Shown here: positions 6,790-64,000 of the stretch, piece by piece
How positions within the stretch are numbered: the stretch's first letter is position 1
Layout: each line of letters opens with the position of its first letter
Origin: Candidatus Gastranaerophilales bacterium
GTDB lineage: Bacteria; Cyanobacteriota; Vampirovibrionia; Gastranaerophilales; Gastranaerophilaceae
DNA length: 64,000 bases
Direction of reading: 5' to 3'
NCBI GenBank assembly: GCA_944325835.1
Contig: CALVBO010000004.1
Span: 96,232-160,231 of the forward strand
Made by a program: the position numbers and the translations under genes
Notes under the pieces: model-generated
Told to the model about the DNA's origin: nothing
What the model saw: the letters and a program-made list of their open reading frames with translations, nothing else
Databases searched by the model: none

Positions 6790-8029
6790 ATGAAAAAACG
6801 AAATGTAAGCATTTTATCAGGGGGGGGGGGGGCCTCTCTTAACAGACACTATTGAACAGTTGAAAGCCTTTAATTGTCATCCTGAACTTGATTCAGGATC
6901 TATCCAGCGATGCGAGCTACCGGTGTCGTTAGACAGATCCCGAAATAAATTCGGGATGACATTAAAGGATATGCCGTCATTGCGTGTCGGTTTTACTATG
7001 GCTGCCCGGCTGAGCCGGTGCCATAATGGGCTGGTCGGCTTGCGGTCAGCGTTTACCATGGCTGAAATATTGCTTTCCCTGACGATAATCGGAGTGGTGG
7101 CGGCGATAACGCTTCCGTCACTCACGGGCAACATCAACGAACGCACCTGGAACACGCAAAGAAAAGCGCTTTATGCAAGATTTTCTCAAGCAATAGCACT
7201 TATGCCTTCTCTGAACGGCTATGGCACATTGAGAGAAGAAACCGACAGCGCCGGTTCGACTTCAATAGAGGACACGGCGGCGGAAACTTTTGTCACAAGC
7301 GGGCTTTCAAAAGTCTTAAAAATTAATAACATCTGTGACCATGAACATTTTCCGGACTGTGGTATTCCTGATAAGGTTGTTACGTTAAAAGGTGATACTT
7401 TAAGTAATTTTACAACAAGTTATAATACTCTGGTTAAATTTAATAATATGTTTAATGGTTCTTATAGTTTTACTGATGGGGGCGGATGTATTTCAACGTA
7501 TTCTCAAATGGATACGAAGGCGGCAGCTTTTGAAACCGCAAATGGTGAAAGTCTTGTCACGTATTATAATCCAAATTGTACAGTAGATATGGGTGAATAC
7601 GATTACTATCTCCAACCAAAGGTTTGTGCCAATTTCGTTTATGACTTGAATGGTTCGAAAGGACCTAATACGGTCGGTAAGGATATTGGTTTCTTGACGG
7701 TATTTTATCCGTCTGATTCACTTGTAGTTGCTCCAAATCCTGTTGTTGGTGCTTTCGGAAGCGGGCTGCCTTATGATGAATCGGTACAAAAATGCAGAAG
7801 TTATGATGATAGCAGGCTTCCCAATATTAACGAGATGGGTTCAATGTTTGTTAACAGGAGTTTGCTTTACGGTAATGAACGTACAGGTTCGTACTGGTCA
7901 ACAAGCCGTGGGGTTACAAATGGCTCAACAGGTATTTATTACTTGAATTTTAACACCGGAGTGATAAGACTTAATAAATCTCCAGCCACTACAACCTCCA
8001 ATTTATACTGGTGTGTTAAACGCAACTAA
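6790..8029 (+). CDS. Cassette 1: phase-variable prepilin with lectin-like C-terminus (13 G, OFF)
   Basis: Ribosome site AAAGGAT, then ATG at 6790 and ten codons (MKKRNVSILS) into a run of 13 G. As written the frame stops at 6853. With 12 G it joins the long downstream frame and gives an 87-residue leader including palindromic-repeat sequence (from NCHPELDSGS), a decoy FTMAARLSR, and then the prepilin site SA|FTMAEILL at 7052. The mature part has the family helix, KINNICDHEH, NGSKGPNTVGKDIG, and a DUF1566-like end (RLPNINEMGSMF ... YWST ... CVKRN). An internal TTG at 6860 opens the same frame but has no ribosome site. Inferred product: exported pilin-anchored surface protein. Confidence 0.85.
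6820..6832 (+). repeat. Poly-G switch tract, cassette 1 (13 G)
   Basis: Homopolymer begins at codon 11 after the TCA codon. 12 G restores the frame to the pilin; 13 G gives a stop at 6853. Confidence 0.9.
6877..6962 (+). repeat. Palindromic repeat unit inside cassette 1 leader
   Basis: CCTGAACTTGATTCAGGAT opens the unit and CCGAAATAAATTCGGGATGA closes it. Related pairs occur at 30.6, 38.0, 38.3, 44.3, 51.0, 57.0 and 63.4-63.8 kb. Confidence 0.8.
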
Positions 8030-8049
8030 AACTACTGCTATCAGTGGCT

Positions 8050-8087
8050 TAAGGGGTATTGCATTTGCAATACCCTTAAAATTTTTT
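8050..8087 (+). terminator. Terminator after cassette 1
   Basis: TAAGGGGTATTGCA pairs with TGCAATACCCTTA, followed by a T6 run at 8082-8087. Confidence 0.85.
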
Positions 8088-8179
8088 AACATTACATTTA
8101 ACCTTTCTTGCAATTCTGTTATTTTGGTCGTAATATTTTTGAACAAGTGTGTATAAGACAATTAAGATTGGATTATGTT

Positions 8180-9055
8180 ATGGCGCTTAATTTTCAAGAA
8201 CTAGTTTTTAATTTACAAAAGTTTTGGTCTGATCAGGGCTGTATTATTCAGCAGCCTTATGATATAGAAAAAGGGGCTTCTACCATGAATCCCGCTACAT
8301 TTTTGCGTTCTTTAGGGCCTGAACCCTGGAACACAGCAATGATTGAACCTTGCAGAAGACCTACTGATGCAAGATATGGCGAAAACCCAAACCGTTTGGG
8401 GCATTATTTTCAATTCCAGGTAATCCTGAAACCTTCTCCGGACGATGCGCAGGAGCTTTACTTGAAGAGTCTTGAGGCAATGGGAATTGACCTTTCAAAA
8501 CACGATGTTCGTTTTGTCGAAGACAACTGGGAATCACCTACTCTCGGTGCGGCCGGCGTCGGCTGGGAAGTCTGGCTTGACGGAATGGAAGTTACACAAT
8601 TCACATACTTCCAACAGGTCGGCGGAATAGAAGTAAAACCGGTTGCTTTAGAACTTACCTACGGTTTGGAACGTATCGCTATGTATTTGCAGAATAAGTC
8701 TTCTGTTTTTGATATACAGTGGAACGACAAGTTGAAATACGGTGAAATCTATTTGCAAAACGAAATTGAACAGTCTAAATACAACTTTGAGGTTTCGGAT
8801 GCAAAAGCACTGTTCACGATGTTTGACCTTTATCAAAAAGAGGTTGATAATTGTGTTAGCGCAAAGCTTGTTTTACCGGCTTATGATTATGTGTTGAAAT
8901 GTTCTCATACTTTTAACCTGCTTGATGCAAGAGGGGTTATAAGTAAGGATGAACGTATCAATTTCATTAACCGTGTCAGAACAATGGCTTCTGCTGTAGC
9001 GCAATTGTATGTAGCACAAAGAGAAGAACTCGGTTTCCCTCTTTGTAAAGTGTAA
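8180..9055 (+). CDS. glyQ: Glycine--tRNA ligase alpha subunit
   Basis: Class II synthetase alpha chain of the bacterial alpha2beta2 glycyl-tRNA synthetase, which charges tRNA-Gly. The family signature is clear: QPYDIEKGASTMNPATFLRS, EPCRRPTDARYGENPNR, VEDNWESPTLGAAGVGWEVW and the YGLERIAMYLQ motif 3. At 291 residues it is full length. The frame extends upstream to a TTG at 8108, but homology begins at the ATG at 8180. The beta subunit (glyS), which often follows, is not in this window. Confidence 0.95.
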   Translation: MALNFQELVFNLQKFWSDQGCIIQQPYDIEKGASTMNPATFLRSLGPEPWNTAMIEPCRRPTDARYGENPNRLGHYFQFQVILKPSPDDAQELYLKSLEAMGIDLSKHDVRFVEDNWESPTLGAAGVGWEVWLDGMEVTQFTYFQQVGGIEVKPVALELTYGLERIAMYLQNKSSVFDIQWNDKLKYGEIYLQNEIEQSKYNFEVSDAKALFTMFDLYQKEVDNCVSAKLVLPAYDYVLKCSHTFNLLDARGVISKDERINFINRVRTMASAVAQLYVAQREELGFPLCKV

Positions 9056-9105
9056 ATGGAGAGGTACTTGTTACTTCTTTGATAGTAAAGTGTAAAGGAA
9101 ATTAG

Positions 9106-63110: not shown

Positions 63111-63130
63111 CTGTATTCAAATACGTAGTC

Positions 63131-63159
63131 TTGACTAAATAGAAAACATGTTACATAAT
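63131..63159 (+). promoter_or_regulatory. Cassette 8 promoter
   Basis: TTGACT, 17-base spacer, CATAAT. Confidence 0.82.
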
Positions 63160-63164
63160 AAAAT

Positions 63165-63275
63165 AGTTAATAAGTTAATAAGTTAAAGAGTTAATAAGGG
63201 ATATGACCGAATGGCAGAAAATAATATAAAGGTCATATTGCCTTAATGCCTTAATGACCTATTGCCTTATTCCAG
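63165..63275 (+). repeat. Cassette 8 5'-UTR inverted repeat, diverged
   Basis: Left arm built of AGTTAATA units, right arm of CCTTAATG and CCTATTGCC units; the same plan as cassettes 1, 4 and 6 with different bases. Confidence 0.6.
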
Positions 63276-63323
63276 TAGTTTGGGCTTTCCAGCCCAACAC
63301 AATAAAAAGAAAGGATGGAAAGA

Positions 63324-64000
63324 ATGAAAAAACAGAGAAGTGTAATTACTTGCACAGGGGGGGGGGGGCCTCTCTTAACAGGCACAATTGGCGAGTCGAA
63401 AGCCTATAATTGTGATTCCGAACAGCGCGAGCGAGCAGAGACACAAAGCGAAAACCACGCTTTTCGCGGTGCCGTTTTTCGCGAGTCGAGCAAGACAGTT
63501 TCGGAATCTGTTCCACAATACGAGCAGGTATCCAACATTGGCCAGACCCTGAAACGAGTTCAGGGTGACAATATTTCGTCATTGCGAGCCGACGAATGTC
63601 GGCGTGGCAATCCAGTCAAAAACACAGCGTCTCCATGTTGTCATGCTGAACTGCGCGAGCGAGCAGAGGCACTAAGCGGGAATGTAAAACATAACTGTCA
63701 TGCTGAACTCGTTTCAGCATCTGTCCAGCGATGTGTTCTACCGGTATCAATGGCCAGATTCCGAAACAAGTTCGGAATGACACCGCCGGTCAAGGCGGCT
63801 TCCTGTTTAGGTTGGTCGTTAAAAAGTCATGTTCAACCCTTGTGGATGGTACTCAGTGCCTGGATTGCCACGCGGTCTGCGACCGCTCGCAATGACAGAG
63901 GGTGGTTGGAGCATGCAACGTTTACCATGGCCGCCCGGCTGAGCCGCTCGACTGAGTCGAGAGCCATAAAGGGTTTACGGGCTCACGGACGACGAATAGC
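63324..64000 (+). CDS. Cassette 8: phase-variable prepilin leader (12 G, ON), 3' end outside window
   Basis: The ATG at 63324 gives MKKQRSVITCT, 12 G (four glycines), then PLLTGTIGESKAYN, and the frame stays open for 225 codons to the end of the window with no stop. It passes through several palindromic repeats, one with a nested insert in reverse orientation (ERAETQSENHAFRG then VFRESSKTV), and a decoy FTMAARLSR at 63921. By comparison with cassettes 1 and 4 the true FTMAEILL site should lie shortly beyond the window. Inferred to be an expressed family member. Confidence 0.75.
   Translation, partial: MKKQRSVITCTGGGGPLLTGTIGESKAYNCDSEQRERAETQSENHAFRGAVFRESSKTVSESVPQYEQVSNIGQTLKRVQGDNISSLRADECRRGNPVKNTASPCCHAELRERAEALSGNVKHNCHAELVSASVQRCVLPVSMARFRNKFGMTPPVKAASCLGWSLKSHVQPLWMVLSAWIATRSATARNDRGWLEHATFTMAARLSRSTESRAIKGLRAHGRRI
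63357..63368 (+). repeat. Poly-G switch tract, cassette 8 (12 G, in frame)
   Basis: Follows ACA; four GGG codons then CCT CTC TTA, the in-frame reading. Confidence 0.9.
63414..63783 (+). repeat. Cluster of palindromic repeats in cassette 8 leader
   Basis: Units at 63414-63571 (with a nested insert at about 63424-63497), a CATTGCGAGCCGACGAATG type at 63580-63615, and further Pro/Glu-coding units to 63783. All are read through in one open frame. Confidence 0.78.

What the first reader, a model, noticed from the sequence alone, without database searches (positions are those of the whole stretch)
6790..64000. A family of eight pilin cassettes switched by in-frame poly-G tracts
Eight + strand loci (6790, 12314, 15609, 30542, 44124, 50889, 56938, 63324) share a start peptide close to MKK-RSV-I-TGGGGP whose glycines come from a 12-14 G run, followed by a prepilin. 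Counting codons, two copies are in frame (30542 with 13 G, 63324 with 12 G) and five are off by one base. Homopolymer G runs near a start codon are the classical substrate for slipped-strand phase variation in host-associated bacteria. I know of no description of this in Melainabacteria, but cannot search.
Basis: partly seen in the sequence, partly recalled or inferred. Interest (0 to 1): 0.95.

Follow-up and report, generated by a model that had tools for sequence, protein, structure and literature searches.

The report
Sixty pilin genes behind poly-G switches
This gut bacterium from a non-photosynthetic sister group of the cyanobacteria carries about sixty pilus-protein genes, each with a run of roughly 13 G's near its start that puts most copies one base out of frame, and gain or loss of single G's likely switches individual pili on and off, which would let one population show many different surfaces.

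Summary
Confirmed, and part of something larger. The window's eight G runs (12-14 G) each follow an RBS-ATG and about 10 codons; in seven a FTMAEIL prepilin is seen downstream, the eighth runs off the contig. Two copies are in frame, five one base off, one broken. The host genome (1.95 Mb) has 93 runs of 11 or more G; 60 distinct loci lead through an open leader into a pilin. Frame states: own 10 on, 37 one G too many, 5 one too few; sister species 11, 39, 1. Off copies look maintained: median dN/dS 0.056 in 13 off/off pairs. Proteins with identical bodies occur in public assemblies in both phases, and window copy 56938, off here, has an on version elsewhere. Non-pilin genes in the same assembly are in frame in 6 of 8 cases v 9 of 51 pilins, against a general length error. 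The modelled pilin ends in a C-type-lectin fold; one pilin is a retroelement target. Most likely: slipped-strand phase variation of a lectin-pilin repertoire. Switching within one population is not shown; the one-G-too-many excess is unexplained.

The parts
6790..8029 (+). Pilin copy 1: ATG 6790, G13 tract 6820-6832, leader, FTMAEIL from 7052; one G too many (off)
12314..12842 (+). Pilin copy 2: G13 tract 12347-12359, FTMAEIL from 12636; one G too many, and the body stops after 68 residues
15609..16647 (+). Pilin copy 3: G14 tract 15638-15651, FTMAEIL from 15697; one G too many (off)
30542..31777 (+). Pilin copy 4: G13 tract 30571-30583, FTMAEIL from 30884; in frame (on), 411 aa; mature part modelled
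44124..45451 (+). Pilin copy 5: G12 tract 44156-44167, FTMAEIL from 44513; one G too few (off)
50889..51712 (+). Pilin copy 6: G14 tract 50921-50934, stop in the leader, FTMAEIL from 51434 in another frame, body of 92 residues; damaged beyond the tract
56938..58111 (+). Pilin copy 7: G13 tract 56968-56980, FTMAEIL from 57134; one G too many (off) here; a full-leader version with 1 difference in 376 residues after the tract is in the protein database (P0121)
63324..64000 (+). Pilin copy 8 (leader only): G12 tract 63357-63368; in frame and open to the window and contig end; pilin body not seen
12252..12280 (+). Promoter-like TTGAC-N-TACATAAT upstream of copy 2
15532..15560 (+). Promoter-like TTGAC-N-TACATAAT upstream of copy 3
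30385..30413 (+). Promoter-like TTGAC-N-TACATAAT upstream of copy 4
56826..56854 (+). Promoter-like TTGAC-N-TACATAAT upstream of copy 7 (no such site within 170 nt of the other four copies)

Best explanation
These are type IV-like prepilin genes whose start peptide contains a 12-14 G run, and slipped-strand gain or loss of single G's in that run likely switches each of about sixty such genes on or off independently. Shown: the tract sits between the start codon and the prepilin cleavage motif; its length decides whether translation from the ATG enters the pilin frame; the leader between tract and pilin is open in that one frame only; most copies are out of frame; lengths differ among close relatives and among assemblies that hold the same protein; out-of-frame copies show purifying selection. 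Inferred: the change is made by replication slippage, it is reversible within a population, and because the tract lies in the leader that a prepilin peptidase would remove, switching would leave the mature pilin unchanged. Predicted: the pilin's C-terminal C-type-lectin fold binds something outside the cell, so switching would change what the cell sticks to or what a host or phage sees.
Against: No reads were available, so no mixture of lengths inside one sample was seen. The states are not spread as free slippage would give: +1 exceeds -1 by 37:5 and 39:1 (p 4e-7, 7e-11), and in the own genome the commonest length follows the reading phase (+1 37 observed, 20.7 expected, max 34 in 20000 shuffles; G047 39 v 29.8, p 1e-4). 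That is not explained. MutS-domain genes are present, so there is no sign of a mismatch-repair defect. The database phases are read from gene-caller starts, not from DNA. The dN/dS pairs were chosen at >=88% protein identity, which favours low values, and single pairs reach 0.86 where dS is near zero. Of the eight window copies, 4 are off by frame alone, 2 are damaged beyond the tract, 2 are in frame.
Confidence: 0.78

Rival explanations
1. Assembly or sequencing error: the real tracts are in frame and short-read consensus adds one G.
For: The sister genome is a metagenome assembly with SPAdes-style contig names. Contig ends in the own genome carry poly-G of 15-30, like the Illumina 'G's end' artefact described in PMC9187656 (passages). 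A +1 error would follow the reading phase, as observed.
Against: In the same assembly other coding tracts of 11-14 G are in frame in 6 of 8 cases (p 0.0023 v 9 of 51 pilins, the pilin-like in-frame L049 left out of both). 10 own and 11 sister pilin loci are in frame. -1 states exist. The bias appears in several genomes.
Confidence: 0.12
2. Programmed decoding: the +1 state is the working state and a fraction of ribosomes or RNA polymerases slips at the G run to make a low level of pilin.
For: The +1 state dominates across phases, and in other genera (7 of 9 classifiable loci, four of the seven from one genome); off/off genes show purifying selection.
Against: Identical proteins occur in frame in other assemblies. 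The only tRNA-Gly(CCC) seen has, read by eye, an ordinary 7-base anticodon loop (30 of 38 tRNA hits were fetched). In the +1 phase a stop follows at most 3 open codons upstream of the tract at 62 of 71 own loci, which reads as a block, not a help.
Confidence: 0.17
3. Silent archive: most copies are donors for recombination, as in Neisseria pilS, and the tract is a recombination or G-quadruplex site rather than a switch.
For: Chromosome blocks between window and sister species break at pilin loci. Of 27 own pilins whose paired sister locus holds a pilin, 12 have their best match elsewhere; in 5 of the 12 that match is over 90% identical, e.g. own L045 equals G047 L131 (100% aa) at a different locus. 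In the other 7 no close counterpart was found.
Against: Copies keep their own RBS and start, and 45 of 71 a promoter-like site (2 of 344 control stretches); leaders stay open in the pilin frame. 15 of the 27 best matches are at the corresponding locus. Some breaks could be misjoins at repeats.
Confidence: 0.1

Closest known systems
Neisseria pilC1/pilC2 poly-G translational phase variation
   Same: A G run (9-15 G in the strains tabulated) in the 5' coding region switches a pilus protein by frame (PMC5320596, passages)
   Different: pilC is two genes for a pilus-associated protein, not the pilin (recalled); here about sixty pilin genes themselves carry the tract in the prepilin leader
Bifidobacterium breve sortase-pilus G-tract switch
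   Same: Gut commensal, tract of about 9-12 G early in a pilus gene annotated as split ORFs, lengths shift in the mouse gut (PMC9187656, abstract and passages)
   Different: Sortase-dependent pili, one or two such clusters per genome; different protein family
Neisseria pilE/pilS antigenic variation (recalled)
   Same: Conserved N-terminus, variable C-terminus, many copies, signs of exchange between loci
   Different: Here copies have their own starts and tracts; no single expression locus was seen
Diversity-generating retroelements with C-type-lectin targets (recalled, e.g. Mtd)
   Different: Among the loci held only pilin L052 and its counterparts match the TR; the window's eight do not

Membership tests
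Slipped-strand (homopolymer) phase-variable genes | Homopolymer run in the 5' coding region, longer than chance | tested here: met
Slipped-strand (homopolymer) phase-variable genes | Run length decides the frame of an otherwise intact gene | tested here: met
   2 of the 8 window copies are damaged elsewhere
Slipped-strand (homopolymer) phase-variable genes | Length differs between close relatives with the same flanks | tested here: met
   4 of 9 comparable locus pairs; database pairs
Slipped-strand (homopolymer) phase-variable genes | Mixed, reversible lengths inside one clonal population | not testable with these tools
   no raw reads
Slipped-strand (homopolymer) phase-variable genes | Expression follows the phase | not testable with these tools
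   no expression data
Type IV-type prepilins | Prepilin N-terminal cleavage/methylation motif | tested here: met
   TIGR02532 17.5 bits v cut-off 16.3 for copy 30542; not listed for copy 15609 read from a downstream start; FTMAEIL nearly invariant in 34 aligned sequences
Type IV-type prepilins | Assembly ATPase and prepilin peptidase in the genome | tested here: met
Type IV-type prepilins | Subunit found in a filament | not tested
   no experiment
Lcl C-terminal (C-type-lectin) domain | Pfam PF07603 over its cut-off | tested here: not met
Diversity-generating retroelement (for pilin L052 only) | RT, Avd, TR and VR with changes at TR adenines | tested here: met
   RVT_1 60.1 v 29.6 bits, bAvd 47.5 v 40 bits (NCBIfam Avd model 47.1 v cut-off 80, below it); 10 of 11 mismatches at TR adenines over 138 nt

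The most novel reading that the evidence does not exclude
A three-layer surface-diversity system in a non-photosynthetic relative of cyanobacteria: about sixty lectin-tipped pilins, each behind its own poly-G switch hidden in the cleaved leader and held in a guarded 'one G too many' off state from which a single deletion turns it on; promoter and pilin body re-paired by recombination at the switch module; and one member rewritten by a diversity-generating retroelement.
Probability: 0.4. Interest if true: 0.93.

Novelty: new variant of a known kind. Interest (0 to 1): 0.8.

Why it matters
As I recall, poly-G switches are best known from a few pathogens, with one or two pilus genes each. A gut commensal lineage with about sixty switchable pilins would be an unusually dense repertoire and would give a concrete, countable handle on how uncultured Gastranaerophilales vary their surface in animals. 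The phase-locked excess of the +1 state is a sharp, testable puzzle about whether off states are neutral. Tract lengths could be read from existing metagenome reads.

Tried and rejected
Rfam on the window and three loci: no match at gathering cut-off. A special four-base glycine tRNA: not seen (30 of 38 hits). Alternative start in the +1 phase: an ATG directly before the tract exists at 17 of 71 own loci (ATGCA prefix) but has no ribosome site that I could see and is absent in the other prefix types, so it cannot explain the +1 excess in general; database proteins beginning MQGGGG are read as gene-caller calls of the +1 phase. A DGR acting on the window's own pilins: TR matches only L052 and its counterparts L173 and L112 over 138 nt among the loci held. 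Loss of mismatch repair: MutS-domain genes present. Gene order around window 13748-15475 in 80 named loci: in the listing, which showed only loci with enough shared sequence or tracts, only the sister species showed comparable pilin loci. The structure matches covered residues 184-297; the pilin part (low pLDDT at residues 1-30) was barely tested.

Rows dropped before counts: tracts cut by contig ends, tracts without a recognised RBS-start, and pilin-less tracts were left out of frame-state counts (own 93 tracts, 65 with pilin, 54 with start as well, 52 with open leader; G047 79 distinct tracts of 84 places, 55, 53, 51). The genus sample (15 +1, 6 on) includes four G047 rows and four rows with scaffold gaps; without them 9 +1 and 4 on. 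In one search, 26 of 30 loci fetched from six genera showed a run on the given strand and 9 could be classified. The eight non-pilin coding tracts were picked by eye from the ORF listing; noncoding and contig-end rows were left out.

Full report
What is there. The window is the end of a contig (C4:96232-160231) of a 1.95 Mb, 99% complete genome in 44 contigs. Its eight poly-G runs are the only homopolymers of nine or more bases in 64 kb, where base composition predicts 0.0007 G or C runs of 12 or more. Each lies about ten codons behind an ATG with a ribosome-site-like sequence, within a peptide such as MKNRSVSISTGGGGP. In seven of eight the prepilin start FTMAEILLSLTIIGVVAAITLPSL follows; the eighth runs into the contig end. 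Copy 12314, one of the five, is also damaged in its body.

It is genome-wide. There are 93 runs of 11 or more G. In 65 rows a pilin follows and in 62 the leader is open, which is 60 distinct loci after two duplicate rows at contig ends. In the family, 84 of 117 sampled genomes (own included) have such runs, with 72-108 in four relatives of the same genus and 0-90 elsewhere. In other genera pilins with other leaders (FTLAEVL, FTMAEVL) carry the same kind of tract.

Why a switch. (1) The tract length decides whether the ATG frame meets the pilin. (2) Lengths vary: of nine own/sister locus pairs with near-identical sequence on both sides of the tract, four differ in length, two of them with a different phase in classified pilins (L034/L118, L035/L114), and five do not differ. 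Among database proteins six sets have identical bodies and different N-termini, for instance P0102/P0103 and P0105/P0107 with no difference in 382 residues. Window copy 56938, out of frame here, has a full-leader version with one difference in 376 residues after the tract (P0121). (3) Out-of-frame genes look maintained: 13 pairs off in both genomes have median dN/dS 0.056 at median dS 0.52; 23 rows in all (one locus twice) have median 0.065. The pairs were chosen at 88% protein identity or more, which favours low values, and single pairs run up to 0.86 where dS is near zero. (4) Assembly error is not general: non-pilin coding tracts are in frame in 6 of 8 cases in the same assembly, v 9 of 51 pilins (p 0.0023; L049, a pilin-like gene in frame, left out of both). 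The two off ones include an AlgX-like gene, L037, whose sister counterpart L098 is on.

What does not fit. Free slippage should spread the states; instead +1 dominates: 37 of 52 and 39 of 51, 9 of 13 in other genus members once sister and scaffold-gap rows are removed, and 7 of 9 in other genera, four of them from one genome. The on fraction itself (10 of 52, 11 of 51) is only somewhat below a third (p 0.04, 0.08). The mode follows the phase: where 11, 12 or 13 G would be in frame, 12, 13 or 14 is commonest in the own genome; in the sister the last class is 4 in frame to 2 over. In the +1 phase at most three codons are open upstream of the tract at 62 of 71 own and 60 of 70 sister loci, in the other wrong phase at 8 of 71 and 10 of 70. 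I read this, as inference, as a tight default off state one deletion away from on; a programmed frameshift remains possible.

Shuffling. In a comparison with eleven chosen sister stretches, shared blocks break at window pilin loci: 2-6722 then 7048, 12281 then 13573, the 15.7-16.3 kb locus, 30481 then 30881 on another contig, 43906 then 44513, 50757 then 51711, 56858 then 57105. The breaks lie between the upstream flank and the pilin start or body. Two more, near 37.9-38.5 kb and at 60.97 kb, are not at a window tract; the first abuts a tract on the sister contig, the second lies 274 bases from the end of a small sister contig. In one search, of 27 own pilins whose paired sister locus held a pilin, 15 had their best match there and 12 elsewhere; 5 of the 12 have a match over 90% identical at another locus. 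Misjoins at repeats cannot be excluded.

Retroelement. On contig C9 an Avd gene (43873-44241), a template repeat (44514-44651) and a reverse transcriptase (44676-45914) lie beside poly-G pilin L052, whose last 138 nt differ from the template at 11 sites, 10 of them template adenines. L052 itself is one G over. Counterparts of the target exist in G047 and G075.

Literature. In the held library no paper joined Gastranaerophilales with phase variation or Melainabacteria with retroelements; searches with Melainabacteria and pili, Gastranaerophilales and pilin and homopolymer terms listed nothing that, by title and abstract start, describes this. PMC5877343 mentions type IV pilus genes in a termite member (passages). 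Two retroelement surveys have no occurrence of pilin. Ten papers hold both retroelement and pilin; I did not open them. Subscription papers were not searched.

Noticed in passing
L206 / G000:C9:42392-45914: A diversity-generating retroelement (Avd, template repeat, reverse transcriptase) whose variable repeat is the lectin end of poly-G pilin L052; same target in G047 (L173) and G075 (L112).
   Followed up: partly
L022, L037, L038, L042, L043, L048, L049, L058, L059, L074, L082: G runs outside the main pilin family, in genes and between genes, share a TYAAY motif within 18 nt after the run (9 of 12 own rows, 5 of 7 sister; control 8-11%) in different reading frames, hinting at a DNA-level module; the motif was chosen after looking.
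   Followed up: partly
L037, L038: Three neighbouring genes with a G run between a short N-terminal part and a large second part; two were scanned and are AlgX/DHHW-like (one over the AlgX cut-off). L037 is off here, its sister L098 on.
   Followed up: partly
L042: A gene that by eye resembles a phage tail fibre is split by an 11-G run and is one base off.
   Followed up: no
window 2-64000 v G047: Gene blocks are reordered between sister species with seven breaks at pilin loci and two elsewhere.
   Followed up: partly
contig ends, e.g. L046, L067, L079, L080, L086, L088: Contig-end runs of 15-30 G, several beside poly-A junk, probably a short-read artefact at G runs.
   Followed up: partly
own and G047 tract loci: The upstream flank is G-richer on the tract's strand at 63 of 86 own and 55 of 75 sister loci, suggesting an orientation bias.
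   Followed up: no
window leaders, e.g. 6833-7051, 30584-30883, 44168-44512: Leaders carry dispersed repeats read in frame (CHSELVSES, RNKFGMT, FTMAARLSR).
   Followed up: no
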